Of a stretch of 49,942 bases of DNA, positions 26,176 to 37,804 are shown piece after piece; the first letter of the stretch is position 1, and each line of letters begins with the position of its first letter. Under the pieces are notes generated by a model. That model ran no database searches. It had not been told where the DNA came from and saw only the letters and a program-made list of their open reading frames with translations. This stretch comes from Patescibacteria group bacterium (GTDB taxonomy: Bacteria; Patescibacteriota; Saccharimonadia; Saccharimonadales; UBA4665). The stretch is taken from the NCBI GenBank assembly GCA_030272735.1, contig JARXKL010000007.1:1-49942 (forward strand). Direction: 5' to 3'. The position numbers and the translations under genes are program-made.

Positions 26176-26558
26176 TGCACGTTCTCCTTATTGAACCCGA
26201 CCGAATGCTCGCCGAAATTTATCGGAGCAGCTTAGTGCGAGCTGGGCACACCGTTACCCCTTGTTCCAGTGCCCAGGCAGGTGTCTTAGCCGCCGATCAG
26301 CATTGTCCAGATGCGGTTGTTTTAGAGTTACAGCTTATTGAGCATTCGGGTATCGAATTCCTCTACGAATTTCGCTCCTACAAAGAGTGGCAAGACATTC
26401 CCGTAATTGTGCACAGTCAAGTTCCATCACACGAGTTTGCTGGTAACTGGCAAATGCTTATGCAGCAGCTTACCATTACCAAATACCTCTATAAGCCGCA
26501 TGCTTCTTTGCAAAACTTAGTAGCGGCAGTGAACGATTTCGCACCGGCCGTTGCATGA
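26175..26558 (+). CDS. Pseudo-receiver response regulator with Glu in place of the phospho-Asp
   Basis: 127-aa CheY-like fold. Acid residues Glu7 and Asp9 sit in LLIEPDRML, Ser replaces Thr in VIVHSQVP, and Lys is in YLYKPH. The normal phospho-acceptor Asp is Glu51 (AVVLELQLIEHSG), so phosphorylation at the standard site should not occur; Asp-to-Glu often mimics the active state. No output domain. It starts on the last base of the kinase-like gene and overlaps recO by 4 bases, so the three are co-translated. Confidence 0.8.
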   Translation: MHVLLIEPDRMLAEIYRSSLVRAGHTVTPCSSAQAGVLAADQHCPDAVVLELQLIEHSGIEFLYEFRSYKEWQDIPVIVHSQVPSHEFAGNWQMLMQQLTITKYLYKPHASLQNLVAAVNDFAPAVA

Positions 26559-27247
26559 ACCAACTCACGAGCAAAGGGATTGTTTTAACTCGTACCGACT
26601 ATGGCGAAGCCGATCGTATCATCACATTGCTGACTCCGGAAGCCGGTAAATTACGACTAATGGCGCGAGGAGTGCGTAAACAAAAAAGTAAACTGGCAGG
26701 CGGCATCGAATTATTCAGTGTTAGCGATGTGACGTATATACATGGCCGCGGTGCGATACAAACACTTATCTCAGCGAGGTTACTGACTCATTTCGGTAAC
26801 ATCGTCAGCAGTATAGAACGTGTTCAGCTCGGCTATGAACTGCTTAAAATGCTCAACAAAGCCACCGAAGATCAGCCAGAGCCGGAGTATTTTGATCTGT
26901 TGCAGGCCGGTCTCCATGCGCTCGACCAGACGCTTATTGGTACTAAATTGATACAAACTTGGTTCGAAGCACAATTACTCCGCTTAAGTGGGCATTCTCC
27001 AAATTTACATACCGATGTAGTCGGCAACAAATTAGTAGCCGACGCCAAATATAGCTTCGATTTTGAGTCTATGTCGTTCGCTTCGCTTCCTGATGGACTA
27101 TATTCGGCCGCCCACATCAAAACGTTGCGACTGCTTTTTAGCCATCATCAACCTGAAGTGTTGCACCAGGTGCAGGGAATAGAGGCGACCTTGCAAACAA
27201 TAGCGCCTATGGTAAGTGCTATGCGCACCACGTACATCCGAACTTAA
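26555..27247 (+). CDS. recO: DNA repair protein RecO
   Basis: Helps load RecA on SSB-coated DNA in the RecFOR pathway. The N-terminal OB-fold is typical: SKGIVLTRTDYGEADRIITLLTPEAGKLRLMARGVRKQKSKLAGG. The helical C-terminal domain follows but lacks the CxxC...CxxC zinc-binding cysteines present in many RecO proteins. 230 aa is near normal. The start ATGA overlaps the pseudo-receiver stop. Confidence 0.93.
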   Translation: MNQLTSKGIVLTRTDYGEADRIITLLTPEAGKLRLMARGVRKQKSKLAGGIELFSVSDVTYIHGRGAIQTLISARLLTHFGNIVSSIERVQLGYELLKMLNKATEDQPEPEYFDLLQAGLHALDQTLIGTKLIQTWFEAQLLRLSGHSPNLHTDVVGNKLVADAKYSFDFESMSFASLPDGLYSAAHIKTLRLLFSHHQPEVLHQVQGIEATLQTIAPMVSAMRTTYIRT

Positions 27248-27281
27248 TTATCAGGTTTTAGGCATACTCTCGGCGAACAGT

Positions 27282-27287
27282 TATACT
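27282..27287 (+). promoter_or_regulatory. -10 element of glycyl-tRNA synthetase gene
   Basis: TATACT ends 7 nt before ATG 27295: predicted leaderless start, with only a weak TTAGGC-like -35 at 27258-27263. Confidence 0.45.
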
Positions 27288-27294
27288 AATAGTA

Positions 27295-28641
27295 ATGAAT
27301 GATCCCGCCCTGGAAACAATAGTCAGCCTCTGTAAGCGCCGCGGTTTTGTGTTTCAAGCTAGCGAAATATATGGCGGTTTTGCCGGTTTTTATGATTACG
27401 GTCCACTTGGTGTTGAGCTCGTAAATAACATCAAGCAAGAATGGTGGAAGGCCATGGTCCGCGAACACGATAATGTTTTTGGAGTTGATGGTGCCATAAT
27501 TCAGCACCCTAAGCTATGGGAAGCTAGTGGACATGTTGCGGGCTTTACAGATCCCATGGTCGAAGACGTCGTTACTCATAAACGATATCGTGCGGACCAT
27601 CTAGCAAATACTGACTCGACAGATTTAGCCGAACTCAAAGAGCTCCTCAAAGATGTTACATCACCTGACGGCAATGCTTTGAGTGAGCCGCGCTTTTTTA
27701 ATATGATGATGCAGACGTGGGTCGGAGCAGTTCAGGATAGTTCAGCCGTTTCATACCTACGCCCCGAGACAGCCGGTTCAATCTTTACAAATTATGAAAA
27801 TGTTCGCGAGACAATGCGCGCCAAGCTACCATTCGGTGTTGCGCAAATTGGCAAAGCTTTCCGTAACGAAATAAGCCCACGCGACTTTATATTTAGGGTT
27901 CGTGAACTGGAACAGATGGAGATGCAATACTTCATACGACCCGAAACACAAGCCGAAGTATATGAAGATTGGCGTACATTTGCCTGGAATTTCCTTATTG
28001 AACGACTTGGTATTTCTAAAGACAACTTGCAGTGGCATGAACATGATGAAAAAGAACGTGCTCATTACGCTGCAGCTGCACATGATATATATTTCAAATA
28101 TCCACAAGGCTTCAAAGAGCTATGGGGGACGCACAACCGCACAGATTATGATCTTGGAGCGCATCAAAAAGCTAGCGGCAAAGATTTACAATATTTCGAC
28201 GATCAGACCCGTGAGCGGTTTACACCTTATGTCATTGAGTCTTCGGTAGGTGTCGGTCGTATGCTCATGGCAGTACTTGTGGACGCTTACAACGAAGAAG
28301 AGATAAACGGCGAAACAAGAGTTGTCTTGAAATTAAAACCTTCTATTGCCCCGTACCGAGTCGCGGTTTCGCCGCTTCTTAAAAACAAGCCTGAGCTTGT
28401 TGCTAAGGCCAGGGAAGTTTACTCTACACTCAAAAAAGAATTTGGAAATGTTATGTGGGACGACAACGGTAACATCGGTAAGCGCTATCGCCGCCAGGAC
28501 GAAATAGGAACACCGTACTGTGTCGTGATTGATTTCGACAGCTTAGAGGGCGACACAAAAGACACGGTGACCGTTCGCAACCGTGACACGACCGAGCAAG
28601 CCCGCGTAACCATTGACGAACTCATTTCCCACCTTTCGTAA
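27295..28641 (+). CDS. glyS: Glycyl-tRNA synthetase, dimeric (alpha2) type
   Basis: Charges tRNA-Gly. This is the single-chain class II enzyme, not the bacterial alpha/beta tetramer. Characteristic text: KRRGFVFQASEIYGG, FYDYGPLGVELVNNIKQEWW near the N-terminus (motif 1 region), LRPETAGSIFTNY, QIGKAFRNEISPRDFIFRVRE (motif 2), ESSVGVGRM (motif 3), then the anticodon-binding domain from about 345 (APYRVAVSPLLKN). 448 aa fits the group. Confidence 0.97.
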   Translation: MNDPALETIVSLCKRRGFVFQASEIYGGFAGFYDYGPLGVELVNNIKQEWWKAMVREHDNVFGVDGAIIQHPKLWEASGHVAGFTDPMVEDVVTHKRYRADHLANTDSTDLAELKELLKDVTSPDGNALSEPRFFNMMMQTWVGAVQDSSAVSYLRPETAGSIFTNYENVRETMRAKLPFGVAQIGKAFRNEISPRDFIFRVRELEQMEMQYFIRPETQAEVYEDWRTFAWNFLIERLGISKDNLQWHEHDEKERAHYAAAAHDIYFKYPQGFKELWGTHNRTDYDLGAHQKASGKDLQYFDDQTRERFTPYVIESSVGVGRMLMAVLVDAYNEEEINGETRVVLKLKPSIAPYRVAVSPLLKNKPELVAKAREVYSTLKKEFGNVMWDDNGNIGKRYRRQDEIGTPYCVVIDFDSLEGDTKDTVTVRNRDTTEQARVTIDELISHLS

Positions 28642-28660: not shown

Positions 28661-28867
28661 ATGGACCACAAAAAACTTTATCGATCAGTCAAGAATAAGA
28701 AAATTGCCGGCGTATGCGGTGGCATCGCTGAATACTTCAATATCGATCCAACGCTTGTGCGCATCGGCGCCTTCATATTATTGCTTCCTGGCGGTCTTCC
28801 CGGATTCATACCATACGTCATCATGTGGGTTATTGTGCCGACAGCTCCAGAATCAACCGAAGTATAA
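28661..28867 (+). CDS. PspC-domain small membrane protein
   Basis: 68-aa PspC-type protein: the segment KKLYRSVKNKKIAGVCGGIAEYFNIDPTLVRIGAF is almost the whole family signature, followed by a membrane helix (about 36-60, ILLLPGGLPGFIPYVIMWVIV). In other bacteria PspC senses membrane stress and talks to PspA/PspB; no psp partners are seen here. The gene starts 20 bp after glyS. A TATTGT hexamer (28649-28654) ends 6 nt before the ATG; AGGAG (28644-28648) is 12 nt away and less well placed. Confidence 0.92.
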   Translation: MDHKKLYRSVKNKKIAGVCGGIAEYFNIDPTLVRIGAFILLLPGGLPGFIPYVIMWVIVPTAPESTEV

Positions 28868-28932: not shown

Positions 28933-29967
28933 ATGCCAGAAGACATCACCACAACAGACATTCTCGATACCACAGAAGAGCTTAAAGACTACAAAGAGAC
29001 TGATGTGTTTGCTTGGGCGAACAATCTCGTACAGTTCAAAGACGAACTGCACATCGATTTATTTTTGATCAACAAAAACTATGTCGTCTATAAAACAAGT
29101 TTAGGCAAAGAGCTCGATAAGCAGCTCGAGCCGTTATTTATAGACGAGATGCTTGAATATGTATTAGAAGGGGCTGCAGAAGGCTTAGTAGTCCGCAGTT
29201 TTGAGCAAGCCGAAGAGGAAAAGAAAGTGCTGCAACGCACGCTACTGCCCAATGTCGACAAACTTAAAGAAACTCTAAACTGGCTCAAAAATGAACAAGA
29301 GATCGAAGTATTCGTCGAGGACGAACACGACTTACGCCGCGTAAAAGGGCTCATGGCCCGCGTTACACACCCTAAAATAAAGCAACCGTTTTATGTGTTT
29401 AAAGTTTTACCGCAGGCGCACATAATGCGCGGCAAACAGGGATGGATGATGCGCGGAGGACGTTTTGTGGCTTTTGATGCGGATGCAGCGCTGCGCATAC
29501 CGTCAGAGCCTCAACTCTTACTCCTCGACCAGGATTTGTACGTATTTAACCAAACGAAGCTCAAGCAATTGTTTGGTTACGATGCCAAGGAGGCAAGCAT
29601 CGCGGCTACCAAAGTCGCCGAAATCGAGGCGAACTTTAAACTGACCTTCGACGAAGGTGACGACATGCAAACATTGGTCAAAGAAAAGAAGAGCCTTATC
29701 AAAAAACTACAAACTATCAATCCTTATGCCGTAAAACAAGAAGAACTTATGAGTCACGCCGATGAACTTGGGATCGATCTTATGGAAGATGGCTCAGGAC
29801 GTATTATAATAATGGACACAAAGGATCTTACGAAGTTTGTAAACTTGCTGAATGACGATTATCACGAATCAGCACTCACGGGGCAGCGCTATGAGATCGT
29901 TCGCAAAAAATTATTAAAATTAGATGAAGAATCCGAAGAAAAGGCCCTCCTAAAAGAAGTTTTGTAA
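28933..29967 (+). CDS. DUF4868 (KwaB)-like protein, 344 aa
   Basis: Tentative match to the DUF4868 family, which includes KwaB of the Kiwa antiphage system. Features remembered for that family and seen here: an N-terminal half with LINKNYVVYKTSL, a middle strand region QPFYVFKVLPQAHIMRGKQ, the FVAFDADAALRIP segment, VFNQTKLKQLFGYDA, then a helical part ending NLLNDDYHESALTGQRYEI. No signal peptide or membrane helix. KwaB partners with the four-helix membrane protein KwaA, which is absent; the small PspC protein upstream is not a KwaA homologue. Its stop (TAATG) overlaps the RNase HI start by one base, so the two are translationally coupled. The family call is from memory and needs a profile search. 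Confidence 0.5.
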   Translation: MPEDITTTDILDTTEELKDYKETDVFAWANNLVQFKDELHIDLFLINKNYVVYKTSLGKELDKQLEPLFIDEMLEYVLEGAAEGLVVRSFEQAEEEKKVLQRTLLPNVDKLKETLNWLKNEQEIEVFVEDEHDLRRVKGLMARVTHPKIKQPFYVFKVLPQAHIMRGKQGWMMRGGRFVAFDADAALRIPSEPQLLLLDQDLYVFNQTKLKQLFGYDAKEASIAATKVAEIEANFKLTFDEGDDMQTLVKEKKSLIKKLQTINPYAVKQEELMSHADELGIDLMEDGSGRIIIMDTKDLTKFVNLLNDDYHESALTGQRYEIVRKKLLKLDEESEEKALLKEVL

Positions 29968-30392
29968 TGATAATTTACTATACTGATGGCAGCTGCGAAC
30001 CCAACCCCGGCAAGGGTGGCTTTGCAGTTATCAGAGATATGAAGCCGGCAGTTTTGGGCCGAGAACCGAGTGGCGCAGAAACTACCAACATACGCATGGA
30101 GGGCTTGGCAATTATTGCCGCACTCAAAGACGCCAACGGCAAGCCATGCCAAATATATTCTGACAGCGAATTTTGGATCAAAGTTATAACTGTGTGGTCA
30201 TTGCCGTGGGAAGCCAATGGCTGGAAGAAGAAAGGTGGCGCAATAAAGAACCTCGATATTGTCCAGAAAGTTTGCCCGCTGTACCGCGAGAGTAAAGCGG
30301 AGCTTATTTGGGTGCGCGGCCACAACAACGATCCTGGCAACGAACTCGCTGATCATTGGGCTAATGAAGCTCGTAAAGGGACCGTACTGTAA
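29967..30392 (+). CDS. rnhA: Ribonuclease HI
   Basis: Cuts RNA in RNA-DNA hybrids. The four catalytic acids are visible: Asp in YYTDGSCEPNPGKGG, Glu in NIRMEGLAI, Asp in IYSDSEF, Asp in NELADHWAN, plus the histidine in WVRGHNNDPGN. The handle region WSLPWEANGWKKKGG is present. 141 aa, standard single-domain length. Overlaps the DUF4868-like gene by one base, and the helicase follows 32 bp downstream. Confidence 0.95.
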   Translation: MIIYYTDGSCEPNPGKGGFAVIRDMKPAVLGREPSGAETTNIRMEGLAIIAALKDANGKPCQIYSDSEFWIKVITVWSLPWEANGWKKKGGAIKNLDIVQKVCPLYRESKAELIWVRGHNNDPGNELADHWANEARKGTVL

Positions 30393-30424
30393 ATGACTTA
30401 CAACATTTATTCGATCGTTATCTT

Positions 30425-31954
30425 ATGAGGCAAGCACAAGCATTAGCGGTTATGATGAGCGGGGCAAATGTATTCCTGACGGGCGCTCCAGGCGCAGGTA
30501 AAACCTATGTGCTTAATCAGTTTATTAAATGCGCCGAAGCGGCCGGTAAGCGTGTAGCAGTAACTGCTAGCACCGGAATAGCTGCCAGCCATTTGGGCGG
30601 CACTACTATTCATTCATGGTCAGGGCTCGGCATTGTTGACTATTTGTCTCCAGAGGATATAGACCGCCTCGGGCAGGCCGAACGACTCGTAAAACGCTAC
30701 AACAGTGTCGACACGCTCGTTATAGATGAAATATCTATGTTACACGGCAACCGTCTCAATCTTATAAACCAAATGGCCAAAGTGTTGCGCGCGAATGATA
30801 AACCATTTGGCGGCATCCAAGTAATCTTAGTTGGCGACCTTTTTCAGCTGCCACCAATTAGTCATGATCGTACGGTGGACTTCGCGCACATTTCAGAAGC
30901 TTGGGAAGAGCTCGAGCCAAAAATTTGCTACATCACCGAGCAACACCGACAACAGGGGAGCGATAAGTTATTAGAATTTTTGGAAGCGATGCGCCGCGGG
31001 GATCTAACTGAAGACAGCGGCCATGCAATCACCGAGCGCGTTGGTGTCCAGCCTCATGAGGACGAAGTACTTACGAGGCTCTACTCGCATAATATCGACG
31101 TTGAGACTATAAATAATAAACACCTCGACGACATTGATGAGCCTACAAAACTCTACACCATGGTTACCAAGGGTTCCAAAGCAAAAGTAGAACAACTCGT
31201 TAAAGGGCTCTTAGCACCCGAAAAATTGCTCCTCAAAATTGATGCCGAAGTTATGTTTGTTGCAAATAACTTTGCCGAAGGTTTTGTAAACGGCAGCCGC
31301 GGTCGCGTTATTGATTTTGATAAGGGCATGCCAGTGGTTACATTACAAAGCGGTCGAACCGTAACAGTAGAGCAACACAGCTGGAATTTGAGCGAAGATG
31401 GGCGCATCAAGGCCGAAGCGGCACAACTACCGCTCCGTTTAGCGTGGGCAATCACGATTCATAAAAGCCAAGGTATGAGCTTGGACGCAGCCGAAGTTGA
31501 CCTGAGCAGGGCATTCACTCCTGGAATGGGGTACGTCGCGCTTTCACGAGTCCGCAGCATAGACGGATTGTACCTCAAAGGCCTCAATGCTATGGCCATG
31601 CAACTACACCCGATGATTTATGGCTACGACGCCGAACTACGTAGTTTATCAGATGAAGTTGCGGCAATTACCGACGATTATGTAGCGCCAACCGTTGATG
31701 CATCAACAAAAAAGACTGGTGTAATCGACGAATTGCTTTTGAAAAAGCTTAAATATTGGCGGACGCAGCGCGCCTCCGCCGACCGAGTCGCGCCGTTTAT
31801 GATTGCCCACAATAGTACGCTGACTGCGCTCGCGCAGGTTGCTCCAACGAGCTCCCAGCAACTTTTCGGTTTGCCAGGTTTTGGCCCTAAAAAAGTTGAA
31901 CACTATGGACCAGAGCTACTCGAGATCATAGATTTGCATCTGTCCGAACTCTAA
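30425..31954 (+). CDS. Pif1/RecD-like superfamily 1 helicase with C-terminal HRDC-like domain
   Basis: 509-aa DNA helicase. Motifs in order: Walker A GAPGAGKTYVLNQF (about 19-32), motif Ia ASTGIAASHLGGTTIHSWSG, Walker B LVIDEISML, motif III GDLFQLPPI, TEQHRQ, and the C-terminal AWAITIHKSQGMSLDAAEVDL with YVALSRVRSIDGLYL (motifs V/VI). These are Pif1 signatures. Residues from about 440 (RVAPFMIAHNSTLTALAQ to LFGLPGFGPKKVEHYG) form an HRDC-type nucleic-acid-binding domain. Pif1-type enzymes unwind RNA-DNA hybrids and G-quadruplexes, which fits its position right after RNase HI. Confidence 0.92.
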   Translation: MRQAQALAVMMSGANVFLTGAPGAGKTYVLNQFIKCAEAAGKRVAVTASTGIAASHLGGTTIHSWSGLGIVDYLSPEDIDRLGQAERLVKRYNSVDTLVIDEISMLHGNRLNLINQMAKVLRANDKPFGGIQVILVGDLFQLPPISHDRTVDFAHISEAWEELEPKICYITEQHRQQGSDKLLEFLEAMRRGDLTEDSGHAITERVGVQPHEDEVLTRLYSHNIDVETINNKHLDDIDEPTKLYTMVTKGSKAKVEQLVKGLLAPEKLLLKIDAEVMFVANNFAEGFVNGSRGRVIDFDKGMPVVTLQSGRTVTVEQHSWNLSEDGRIKAEAAQLPLRLAWAITIHKSQGMSLDAAEVDLSRAFTPGMGYVALSRVRSIDGLYLKGLNAMAMQLHPMIYGYDAELRSLSDEVAAITDDYVAPTVDASTKKTGVIDELLLKKLKYWRTQRASADRVAPFMIAHNSTLTALAQVAPTSSQQLFGLPGFGPKKVEHYGPELLEIIDLHLSEL

Positions 31955-32032: not shown

Positions 32033-32602
32033 ATGAAGCGACAGAATATTAAGCAAGCCCTCGTGCGATCAATCGCAATCGTCGGAGCAGTTATGGCTCT
32101 CGTGAGCGGAGTAACCTATGCGGCATTACAGAGCCAACCTGGTGTGTTTCGCGGTAGTACAATTCATACGGCTATAGCGAGCCTACAGGTCAGTAACAAT
32201 GGTACGACTTTTGGTAGTACCATTGATGGCTTAGGCTTCAATAGCTTAGTGCCAGGCGGCTCACCATCGCCGTCAAGCGGCTATCCAGTCTATGTACGTA
32301 ATGTCGGTACAGCCCCGCTAGCCATTAAATTGAGCGTGCCAACTGGGATTAGCAACCTCGATAATGTCGATTTGAACAAAGTTCACGTACTCGTTACACC
32401 TTTTGGCATAGGAACTGCCCAAAATATAACCTTACAAGATTTGATTACAAGTCCTGTTTCGATAGTTAACGGTGGCAGAATGATTGCCGGCCAAACTTCA
32501 ATATTTACAATGCAGGTATCACTCGATGCTGATGCTGTAACAGGCCCAAGTGGATCAATCACAAACATCGACTTCACATTCGGCGGAGCAGCGGTAAATT
32601 AG
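32033..32602 (+). CDS. Secreted TasA/camelysin-like protein with SipW-type signal peptide
   Basis: 189-aa exported protein. The basic N-terminus and hydrophobic core (about 12-30) end with VTYAALQSQ, typical of signal peptides cleaved by SipW-type peptidases. The mature part is rich in Ser, Thr, Gly and Asn, with short strands (IHTAIASLQVSNNG, YPVYVRNVGTAPLAIKLSV) that suggest a beta-sandwich as in TasA/CalY fibre proteins; overall identity cannot be judged. The next gene is a SipW-type signal peptidase 6 bp downstream, the classic partner. AAAGGAG (32019-32025) gives a good ribosome-binding site. Confidence 0.6.
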   Translation: MKRQNIKQALVRSIAIVGAVMALVSGVTYAALQSQPGVFRGSTIHTAIASLQVSNNGTTFGSTIDGLGFNSLVPGGSPSPSSGYPVYVRNVGTAPLAIKLSVPTGISNLDNVDLNKVHVLVTPFGIGTAQNITLQDLITSPVSIVNGGRMIAGQTSIFTMQVSLDADAVTGPSGSITNIDFTFGGAAVN

Positions 32603-32608
32603 TTACTT

Positions 32609-33118
32609 GTGAAGCACATAATGCTTACAATTGTGCGGCAGCTCGGGCTTATAGCTTGCCTGAGCTGCCTAATGCTCGCAGCCGGTCTCAGTTTACTAGG
32701 CCTGACACACTGGCGATTTGTAGCAGTCCAAACAAATAGTATGGTGCCTACATTTAATGCTGGTGATGCGCTACTCATTACCTCAGATCGTACTGCAACT
32801 ATACAGCAGGGTGACATTATTACGTATCGCAGCCAAAACGATCCGCAAATGACTATTTCTCATCGGGTAGTCTCAGTGCTAGGTGACAGTATTATCACCG
32901 CCGGTGATGCCCAGAAAATTCATGACCCATCTGTTTCGCAGTCGCAAATAGTAGGCCATGCAGTAGCTGTTGCACCCAGACTCGGCATCATTATTACTTG
33001 GCTCCACACTCCATATGGCCTGGCAGCCGCTCTCTATGGCCCCGCCGCTATACTCTGTGGCACTGAGCTTTGGCGGGTGCGAAAACAACTGCAGCTGCCG
33101 GTGTATTCCATAGGGTAG
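32609..33118 (+). CDS. sipW: Signal peptidase I, SipW (ER/archaeal) type
   Basis: 169-aa membrane peptidase. An N-terminal helix (about 8-31) is followed by the catalytic Ser box TNSMVPTFNAGD, then the ISHRVV box, where a His replaces the Lys of ordinary bacterial signal peptidases (the ER/SipW Ser-His type), and a GDAQ segment. A second helix lies near 130-155. The gene directly follows the TasA-like substrate candidate. Start GTG 32609 is 6 bp after the upstream stop; ATG 32621 is an alternative that would shorten the basic N-terminus. Confidence 0.88.
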   Translation: MKHIMLTIVRQLGLIACLSCLMLAAGLSLLGLTHWRFVAVQTNSMVPTFNAGDALLITSDRTATIQQGDIITYRSQNDPQMTISHRVVSVLGDSIITAGDAQKIHDPSVSQSQIVGHAVAVAPRLGIIITWLHTPYGLAAALYGPAAILCGTELWRVRKQLQLPVYSIG

Positions 33119-36184: not shown

Positions 36185-36550
36185 ATGGCCACGGTAGACT
36201 ACTTCGAACGAAAACTAGACGATAAGCGGCGGTTAACCATACCACCGGAACTTCGTGATACGTTTGCGAGCGGAGCAGTAATCACTAGAGGCTTCGGCAA
36301 ATATCTGCACCTTTATCCAAAAGATGTGTGGAATAATTTAGTCGAACCAAGGCTGGAAGGCGATATCCTCGACGAGCGCATAGCAGATCTCAACGTCCAG
36401 TTTAGGATGGGAAAGATCGAAGATCGCCCGGATGGCAAACAAGGACGGATCACCGTAGAGCAACATTTGCTCGACTATGCTGGCATCAGCAGGGACGTGA
36501 TCGCAGTCGGCGTTGGCCGCTACTGGCGACTTATGGCCCCTGAAGCCTAA
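36185..36550 (+). CDS. mraZ: Transcriptional regulator / division cluster protein MraZ
   Basis: 121-aa AbrB-like double-domain protein. Two copies of the swapped-hairpin fold are visible: first FERKLDDKRRLTIPPELRD (about 8-26), then DGKQGRITVEQHLLDYAGI (about 82-100). MraZ represses the dcw operon in E. coli by binding repeats upstream of mraZ. Length is a little under the usual 140-150 aa. AAGGG (36175-36179) lies 5 nt before ATG. It is the first gene of a dcw cluster that continues to 44724. Confidence 0.93.
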   Translation: MATVDYFERKLDDKRRLTIPPELRDTFASGAVITRGFGKYLHLYPKDVWNNLVEPRLEGDILDERIADLNVQFRMGKIEDRPDGKQGRITVEQHLLDYAGISRDVIAVGVGRYWRLMAPEA

Positions 36551-36883
36551 AGCTATAGTCCTAACGTTCATTAACAATTCAAAACAAACACAAAGCCCGA
36601 ATAGTATAAACAAAACGAGTTTACCTATTCGGCAATCAACAAGTGGAAAATTATAGAAAACCACTCAAAAAAATCTCGCACCTTTTCTAAAACACCTCCC
36701 AAAACTCCACCTCACACATAAGTCTCTCAAACGTTCATTGGCAAACTGTATTCTTACAAGAACTGATGAACAAACAAAAACAAAAACGGTAACGAAACAA
36801 AAACAAAACGTTGATTGCTGATTAGGTGACCTTGCAAAACAAAAACAAATACAAAAACAAAAAAGCTTCATTTCCAAACGGGA
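36551..36883. other. mraZ-rsmH intergenic leader rich in CAAAAAC motifs
   Basis: 333 bp without a supported gene. It holds several A/C-rich runs of the CAAAAAC type (about 36580-36615, 36770-36808 and 36835-36865) and a 10-bp direct repeat AACGTTCATT (36563-36572, 36730-36739). A short ORF of 8 codons (ATG 36766, MNKQKQKR) is encoded by one run. TTGGCA at 36738-36743 lacks a matching -10. I see no tRNA or stable hairpin. Confidence 0.6.
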
Positions 36884-37804
36884 ATGAAATACAGGACCGC
36901 AAGTCGCATGCACCAAAACAAAAACCAAAATATATATAAACAGCACGTGCCAGTGTTGCTGAACGAAGTGCTGCAGTACTTTGACCCGAAGCCAGGAGAG
37001 TCTTATCTCGATCTGACGGCCGGTTACGCAGGACACGCGGAAGCAATAACGGAACGGACTGGAAGCCTCACTTCTACAACATTAGTTGATCGCGATAGTA
37101 ATGCGATAGCTGTGCTGAAAGAAACCTACGGTGACACAGGGCCTACTCTGTTGCACACCGATTTTCTGCACGCCAGCGAACAATTACTCAGCGAGGGTAA
37201 ACGCTTTGATATGATATTGGCCGATTTGGGCGTATCGTCACCGCACTTAAACGAGGATACCCGTGGTTTCTCGCTACAAGGACAGGGTCCACTCGATATG
37301 CGTATGGATCAGGAGCAGTCAATAACCGCTGCAACTATTCTCAATACGTATAAAGAACAAGACCTAGCCGACCTACTGAAAAGGTATGGGGAAGAGCCCA
37401 AAGCTCGTCAGATCGCCGCTGGCATAGTCCAAGCGCGGCCACTGACTAACGCTTCCGAGCTTGCCACCATTGCCTCATCAGCCTGGCCCGGCCATAGTCG
37501 AGTCCACCCGGCAACAAGAACATTTCAAGCTATCCGCATCGCCGTGAACGACGAATTAGGATTGTTAGAAAAATCTTTGCCACTCTGGATGAAACTACTG
37601 AATCCTGGCGGGCGTCTCGCAGTCATTAGTTTCCATAGTCTGGAAGACCGTATCGTAAAACGGGCTTTTAAGGAAGCATGTGGCAGCGGATATGACGCTG
37701 AGCTTGTCGAGCTCACAAAACGACCCGTTACGGCGTCCTCAAACGAAATAGTCACTAATCCGCGAGCCCGAAGCGCAAAGCTAAGGGTAAGCCAGCGAAA
37801 ATAA
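36884..37804 (+). CDS. rsmH: 16S rRNA (cytosine-1402-N4)-methyltransferase RsmH
   Basis: Methylates C1402 of 16S rRNA. Family text: HVPVLLNEVLQYFDP, SAM motif YLDLTAGYAGHAEAI, FDMILADLGVSSPHLNEDTRGFS, GPLDMRMD, HPATRTFQAIRIAVNDELG and the end region RLAVISFHSLEDRIVKRAF. 306 aa is normal. The start is uncertain: ATG 36884 gives MKYRTASR, while ATG 36908 gives MHQNKNQNIYKQHVPVLL, closer to the usual distance before HVPVLL. The first codons themselves come from a CAAAAAC-type stretch. Confidence 0.95.
   Translation: MKYRTASRMHQNKNQNIYKQHVPVLLNEVLQYFDPKPGESYLDLTAGYAGHAEAITERTGSLTSTTLVDRDSNAIAVLKETYGDTGPTLLHTDFLHASEQLLSEGKRFDMILADLGVSSPHLNEDTRGFSLQGQGPLDMRMDQEQSITAATILNTYKEQDLADLLKRYGEEPKARQIAAGIVQARPLTNASELATIASSAWPGHSRVHPATRTFQAIRIAVNDELGLLEKSLPLWMKLLNPGGRLAVISFHSLEDRIVKRAFKEACGSGYDAELVELTKRPVTASSNEIVTNPRARSAKLRVSQRK

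What the first reader, a model, noticed from the sequence alone, without database searches (positions are those of the whole stretch)
28933..31954. DUF4868 (KwaB)-like protein coupled to RNase HI and followed by a Pif1-type helicase
The 344-aa protein resembles DUF4868, known from the Kiwa antiphage system as KwaB. Its stop overlaps the RNase HI start by one base, and a Pif1/HRDC helicase starts 32 bp later. RNase HI and Pif1 helicases both act on RNA-DNA hybrids, so the set looks like an R-loop or replication-intermediate module with a DNA-binding-type partner. KwaA is absent, so it would not be canonical Kiwa. The combination could be a housekeeping repair unit or an undescribed defence-like module.
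Basis: partly seen in the sequence, partly recalled or inferred. Interest (0 to 1): 0.6.

Follow-up and report, generated by a model that had tools for sequence, protein, structure and literature searches.

The report
Sensor-less Kiwa KwaB with RNase HI, helicase
In the tiny parasitic Saccharibacteria (TM7), a relative of the phage-defence protein KwaB lives without its usual membrane partner as an old, vertically inherited chromosomal gene, and it tends to sit beside, and be lost together with, two enzymes that process RNA-DNA hybrids and DNA forks, which suggests a built-in DNA-maintenance (or built-in defence) role rather than an ordinary Kiwa defence system.

Summary
The 344-aa protein is a divergent member of the KwaB family: PF16162 E 8e-14, and an AlphaFold model whose only significant PDB matches are KwaB structures. 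It overlaps rnhA by one base, and a PIF1-HRDC helicase follows 32 bp later. No KwaA was found.

It is not a Kiwa system. The 80 best of 299 relatives in species genomes all come from Saccharibacteria or generic CPR/unnamed MAGs; no IMG/VR contig or plasmid had one. KwaB usually lies in one chromosomal interval (RecO-GlyRS ... MraZ-RsmH). Its tree tracks RecO and RsmH. It is near-universal in one large family and lost in patches elsewhere.

The contiguous trio is rare (window plus 4 of 80 loci), but the association is real. Within the interval KwaB touches RNH (10 of 17; 3.9 expected) and PIF1 (11 of 22; 4.3 expected) more often than chance. On an 81-genome SecA tree, gain and loss of KwaB depends on RNH (LR 23.1) and PIF1 (LR 24.9; 0 of 80 simulations reach either), more strongly than on two neighbouring control genes.

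Best reading: a chromosomal KwaB acting with RNase HI and PIF1 on R-loops or replication intermediates. Constitutive defence remains possible. No function was tested.

The parts
28933..29967 (+). KwaB-family (DUF4868, PF16162) protein, 344 aa, acidic (pI 4.9), no transmembrane segment
   Evidence: Pfam 8e-14; PADLOC KwaB; NCBIfam KwaB 58 bits, below its 200-bit cut-off; AlphaFold model matches only KwaB structures 9mtn/9mrx/9nyu, E 1.7e-12 to 3.6e-11; pI and hydropathy
29967..30392 (+). RNase HI, 141 aa; candidate catalytic carboxylates D7, E45, D69, D131 by alignment with E. coli RNase HI
   Evidence: PF00075 6e-30; alignment to solved RNase HI structures; start overlaps the kwaB stop by one base
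30425..31954 (+). PIF1-type SF1B helicase with C-terminal HRDC domain, 509 aa; Walker A GAPGAGKT, Walker B DEIS
   Evidence: PF05970 1.1e-31, PF00570 1.2e-19; best solved relative is the ATP-dependent DNA helicase PIF1, E 4.8e-69
26555..28641 (+). RecO and glycyl-tRNA synthetase: left frame of the conserved interval that holds KwaB
   Evidence: TIGR00613 and NF003211; conserved upstream of KwaB in most loci
36185..37804 (+). MraZ and RsmH: right frame of the interval (start of the division and cell-wall cluster; names by sequence recognition)
   Evidence: Conserved downstream of KwaB in most loci; FtsI/FtsW/MraY-like genes follow

Best explanation
A chromosomal KwaB-family protein of Saccharibacteria that works without the KwaA membrane sensor, as a DNA-binding partner of RNase HI and a PIF1-HRDC helicase. 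Proposed mechanism: the KwaB dimer binds DNA at stalled replication forks or R-loops; RNase HI removes the RNA strand; PIF1 unwinds the remaining structure and its HRDC domain helps hold DNA. The set would protect the cell's own replication. Shown: KwaB fold membership, absence of a detectable KwaA in the searched relatives, vertical inheritance, conserved address, preferred adjacency to RNH and PIF1, correlated loss. Taken from literature on canonical Kiwa: KwaB dimers bind DNA, block replication and late transcription, and do not cut. Inferred: the same DNA-binding in this clade, the substrate, and the joint action.
For: KwaB fold. KwaB tree tracks the core genes RecO (r 0.83) and RsmH (r 0.83), against 0.82 for RecO-RsmH and 0.08-0.09 for the transferred GlyRS. 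It sits in the RecO-GlyRS/MraZ-RsmH interval in most loci. Adjacency above shuffled order: RNH 10 of 17 vs 3.9 expected, PIF1 11 of 22 vs 4.3, controls (NYN, MBL, YvcK, BGL) not enriched. Correlated evolution on the SecA tree: KwaB-RNH LR 23.1, KwaB-PIF1 LR 24.9, 0 of 80 simulations each; controls KwaB-MBL 10.6, KwaB-NYN 1.3. Present in 161 of 245 genomes of the class, RNH in 167, both in 147. No relative in IMG/VR or plasmids. Canonical KwaB binds DNA without cleaving it (PMC12904381).
Against: No biochemistry. KwaB is lost in many lineages, so it is not essential everywhere. RNH and PIF1 persist without it (G033). Genus g82 keeps KwaB and RNH without a PIF1 hit. KwaB presence also correlates with genome size (LR 15.5), so part of the co-loss may be general reduction. 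Adjacency counts are not corrected for shared ancestry.
Confidence: 0.45

Rival explanations
1. Constitutive anti-phage or anti-plasmid effector: KwaB binds incoming DNA in the cytoplasm and blocks its replication without a membrane sensor, with RNase HI and PIF1 attacking primers or R-loops of the invader.
For: Family is known for defence. A paper cites a preprint saying KwaB alone gives some protection without KwaA (PMC11514479). CPR genomes rarely carry CRISPR (PMC6509639 abstract). Patchy losses in family f1.
Against: Vertical inheritance, fixed address among housekeeping genes, near-universality in family f35, no spread to plasmids or IMG/VR contigs: unlike typical mobile defence genes. 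No KwaA.
Confidence: 0.27
2. No joint function: three ordinary genes that share an accessory-gene interval; co-loss reflects overall genome reduction and adjacency reflects shared ancestry.
For: Contiguous trio only in the window and 4 of 80 loci. KwaB correlates with genome size. RNH-PIF1 neighbourhood survives loss of KwaB.
Against: Two neighbouring control genes show weaker dependence on KwaB (LR 10.6 and 1.3 vs 23-25). RNH itself is not size-dependent (LR 5.6, p 0.23). Gene order flips while adjacency is kept. In G038 KwaB has moved elsewhere but RNH and PIF1 are still present.
Confidence: 0.23
3. A degenerate or two-locus Kiwa whose KwaA is highly divergent or encoded elsewhere.
For: A PspC-like small membrane protein (28661-28867) lies just upstream in the window; divergent membrane proteins are easily missed by profiles (inference).
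Against: No KwaA match in 30 relatives. PspC-like gene present in only 6 distinct other loci, never adjacent to KwaB there. No membrane protein family is a consistent neighbour.
Confidence: 0.05

Closest known systems
Kiwa (KwaA-KwaB) anti-phage system
   Same: KwaB fold over nearly the full length (Foldseek E 1.7e-12, about 14% identity), acidic pI 4.9 in both, C-terminal LLNDDYxxSxLTxxxY motif shared.
   Different: No KwaA, no kwaA-kwaB overlap (seen in the Emticicia plasmid control), vertically inherited chromosomal site, RNase HI and PIF1 neighbours, score far below the NCBIfam KwaB equivalog cut-off (58 vs 200 bits).
DUF4868 gene of Lactobacillus phage JNU_P5 (QHJ74811.1)
   Same: PF16162 hit of similar strength (50.6 bits).
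   Different: Phage-borne, different neighbours (primase, methyltransferase, HNH), about 20% identical.
Cellular RNase HI and bacterial Pif1 helicases
   Same: Catalytic motifs and closest solved relatives.
   Different: Genomic partnership with a KwaB-family protein; I know of no description of it, and a text search for DUF4868 returned one unrelated paper.

Membership tests
KwaB / DUF4868 protein family (PF16162) | Profile score above the curated Pfam cut-off | tested here: met
   52.5 vs 26.3 bits; 32 of 32 homologues in relatives above the cut-off
KwaB / DUF4868 protein family (PF16162) | KwaB tertiary fold | tested here: met
   Six KwaB chains are the only PDB matches with E <= 0.001; model pLDDT 77.8; TM 0.43-0.50 at high rmsd, so the match is in fold and topology and not a close superposition
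Kiwa system | KwaB equivalog level (NCBIfam NF041623 cut-off 200 bits) | tested here: not met
   58.4 bits
Kiwa system | KwaA transmembrane sensor encoded with KwaB | tested here: not met
   NF041622: 0 of 30 relatives; neighbourhood clusters show no conserved membrane protein; control plasmid has overlapping kwaA-kwaB
Kiwa system | Horizontally mobile, patchy distribution or defence-island context | tested here: not met
   Congruent trees, fixed interval, near-universal in one family; none in plasmids or IMG/VR
Kiwa system | DNA binding by KwaB, block of replication and late transcription, phage protection | not testable with these tools
   Needs biochemistry and phage challenge
RNase HI | RNase H fold with the DEDD carboxylates | tested here: met
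   D7, E45, D69, D131 align with the E. coli catalytic positions
PIF1 helicase | SF1B helicase motifs and 2B region | tested here: met
   C-terminal HRDC domain in addition

The most novel reading that the evidence does not exclude
KwaB-family proteins have a chromosomal, non-defence (or innate, sensor-free) role as a DNA- or R-loop-binding partner of RNase HI and PIF1 in Saccharibacteria, and either Kiwa arose by adding KwaA to such a factor or Saccharibacteria domesticated a Kiwa effector into core genome maintenance.
Probability: 0.4. Interest if true: 0.78.

Novelty: new variant of a known kind. Interest (0 to 1): 0.6.

Why it matters
Defence effectors are usually seen as mobile and paired with a sensor. 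Here the effector family of Kiwa is a core-like, vertically inherited gene in a group of host-dependent bacteria that rarely carry CRISPR, evolutionarily tied to RNase HI and PIF1. It gives a testable hint to what KwaB recognises on DNA, to where Kiwa came from, and to a possible core function in Saccharibacteria, for which gene deletion and Tn-seq already exist (PMC10633639).

Tried and rejected
PspC-like gene 28661-28867 as a KwaA substitute: not conserved next to KwaB. Search for KwaB on viral contigs: no relative. Direct phmmer of KwaB against PDB: nothing; profile search only E 1.2 to KwaB; solved by fold search. Outside the order, only three sub-threshold PF16162 hits in 380 Patescibacteria. 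GlyRS as species-tree marker rejected, its tree does not match RecO; SecA used instead. A first parametric bootstrap timed out and was rerun. The Kiwa Cell paper was not held; its content is taken from other papers that describe it. Promoter and terminator scans were at chance level.

Full report
What is there. The window lies in an 840-kb, 24-contig genome. Its relatives by KwaB in the species-genome collection are Candidatus Saccharibacteria (TM7), apart from some records titled only 'Patescibacteria group bacterium' or 'bacterium'. Pfam, PADLOC and NCBIfam agree on the families. The RNase HI aligns with E. coli RNase HI at the catalytic carboxylates and the helicase with solved bacterial Pif1.

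Is it really KwaB? Yes, but distant. PF16162 gives 52.5 bits against 138 bits for a genuine plasmid KwaB used as control, and the NCBIfam equivalog score (58) is far below its cut-off (200). An AlphaFold model from 31 homologues (pLDDT 77.8) finds six KwaB chains (crystal structures and the KwaA-KwaB complex) at E 1.7e-12 to 3.6e-11 over nearly the whole length, and nothing else below 0.9. The C-terminal LLNDDYxxSxLTxxxY motif is shared. Within Saccharibacteria about 40 columns are invariant among 31 sequences of 39-80% identity to the window, so the protein is under strong constraint.

Distribution. 299 relatives were detected in one-per-species genomes; the best 80 were kept. None in IMG/VR or plasmids; in phages only one chance-level DUF4868 hit. 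In 245 genomes of the class 161 carry KwaB, none listed outside the order. It is near-universal in one large family (f35: by my count of the tables 137 carriers, and about ten non-carriers visible), including genus g82 with 600-1100 kb genomes, and patchy in the window's own family (24 of 59; 32 of 99 relatives overall). In 380 genomes of the phylum, all 24 matches above the cut-off are in the same order.

Inheritance. In most loci KwaB lies between RecO-GlyRS and MraZ-RsmH. Of 46 loci with long flanks 37 meet a strict two-sided test, and most of the rest show one of the two sides. KwaB patristic distances track RecO (r 0.83) and RsmH (r 0.83) as well as these track each other (0.82), whereas GlyRS does not (0.08-0.09), so the test can fail. 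Relatives without KwaB keep the interval: G033 has RecO-GlyRS-RNH-PIF1-SipL-NYN-MraZ-RsmH with 107 bp between RNH and PIF1. KwaB is therefore best read as an old gene that has been lost repeatedly. The SecA tree needs 13 changes against 22.6 in shuffles.

Is the trio a unit? Not a fixed operon: KwaB touches RNH in 19 of 80 loci and PIF1 in 21 of 80; both flank it in 3, and L092 has KwaB-RNH-PIF1 like the window. The RNH-KwaB order is usually the reverse of the window's. But within the 27 complete intervals KwaB is adjacent to RNH in 10 of 17 (3.9 expected by shuffling) and to PIF1 in 11 of 22 (4.3 expected), while NYN, MBL, YvcK and BGL are not enriched next to KwaB; only BGL-YvcK forms another such pair. 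These shuffles ignore shared ancestry.

Correlated evolution. On an 81-genome SecA tree KwaB and RNH co-occur 20/7/8/46 (Fisher 2e-7) and KwaB and PIF1 27/0/34/20 (8e-5). A dependent two-gene model beats independence by LR 23.1 and 24.9; 80 simulations under independence gave at most 8.5 and 9.5. Controls: KwaB-MBL 10.6, KwaB-NYN 1.3, RNH-PIF1 12.6, RNH-MBL 4.1, RNH-NYN 0.4; genome size-KwaB 15.5, size-RNH 5.6. In the fitted model KwaB is lost almost only where RNH is already absent. Across the class 147 genomes have both, 14 KwaB only, 20 RNH only, 64 neither (same tables, not phylogenetically corrected). The PIF1 link is not universal: much of genus g82 has no PIF1 hit but keeps KwaB and RNH. 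Tests of this type can be inflated by few deep events and by incomplete genomes, and genome reduction explains part of the signal.

Kiwa or not. Kiwa needs KwaA, a membrane tetramer that recruits KwaB dimers; KwaB binds DNA and blocks replication and late transcription without cutting (PMC12904381). A second paper cites a preprint in which KwaB acts without KwaA and KwaA is needed for control (PMC11514479). KwaA was not found, no membrane protein is a steady neighbour, and the control plasmid shows what a true kwaA-kwaB overlap looks like. The gene is a KwaB-family protein but not a Kiwa system.

Mechanism. The best-supported inference is a DNA-binding KwaB that works on RNA-DNA hybrid or fork structures with RNase HI and PIF1. 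The linkage is shown; the biochemistry is inference. A constitutive defence role is the main rival; independent neighbours with shared loss is the null. The published Tn-seq of a Saccharibacterium (PMC10633639) could decide between core and accessory at once, but its tables were not readable here.

Noticed in passing
window 27295-28641: Glycyl-tRNA synthetase tree does not match RecO or KwaB trees (r 0.08-0.09) although gene position is conserved; two sequence types (about 80% and about 53% identical to the window) occur at the same site, suggesting in-place replacement by transfer.
   Followed up: partly
window 28661-28867: Unlisted small ORF (68 aa) with a PspC-like membrane domain between GlyRS and KwaB; occurs in 6 distinct other loci of the same region.
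   Followed up: yes
window 32033-33118: A secreted-protein-like gene without a Pfam hit followed by a signal-peptidase S26 gene (SipW/TasA-like pair), conserved downstream of PIF1 in several genera.
   Followed up: no
BFVD entry A0A8S5QWK1 (Siphoviridae sp. ctQNW6): A 217-aa viral fragment is 35% identical to the window KwaB with TM 0.89: either a Saccharibacteria phage carrying this KwaB or a mislabelled bacterial contig.
   Followed up: no
L318:3641-4633: Lactobacillus phage JNU_P5 carries a DUF4868/KwaB-like gene near a methyltransferase and an HNH gene.
   Followed up: partly
genomes G176 and G265: Two KwaB-family matches each in an otherwise single-copy family.
   Followed up: no
genus g82 loci L172, L174, L175, L188, L189, L191: In the compact genus KwaB has left the usual interval but stays about 2 kb from RsmH in divergent orientation.
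   Followed up: partly
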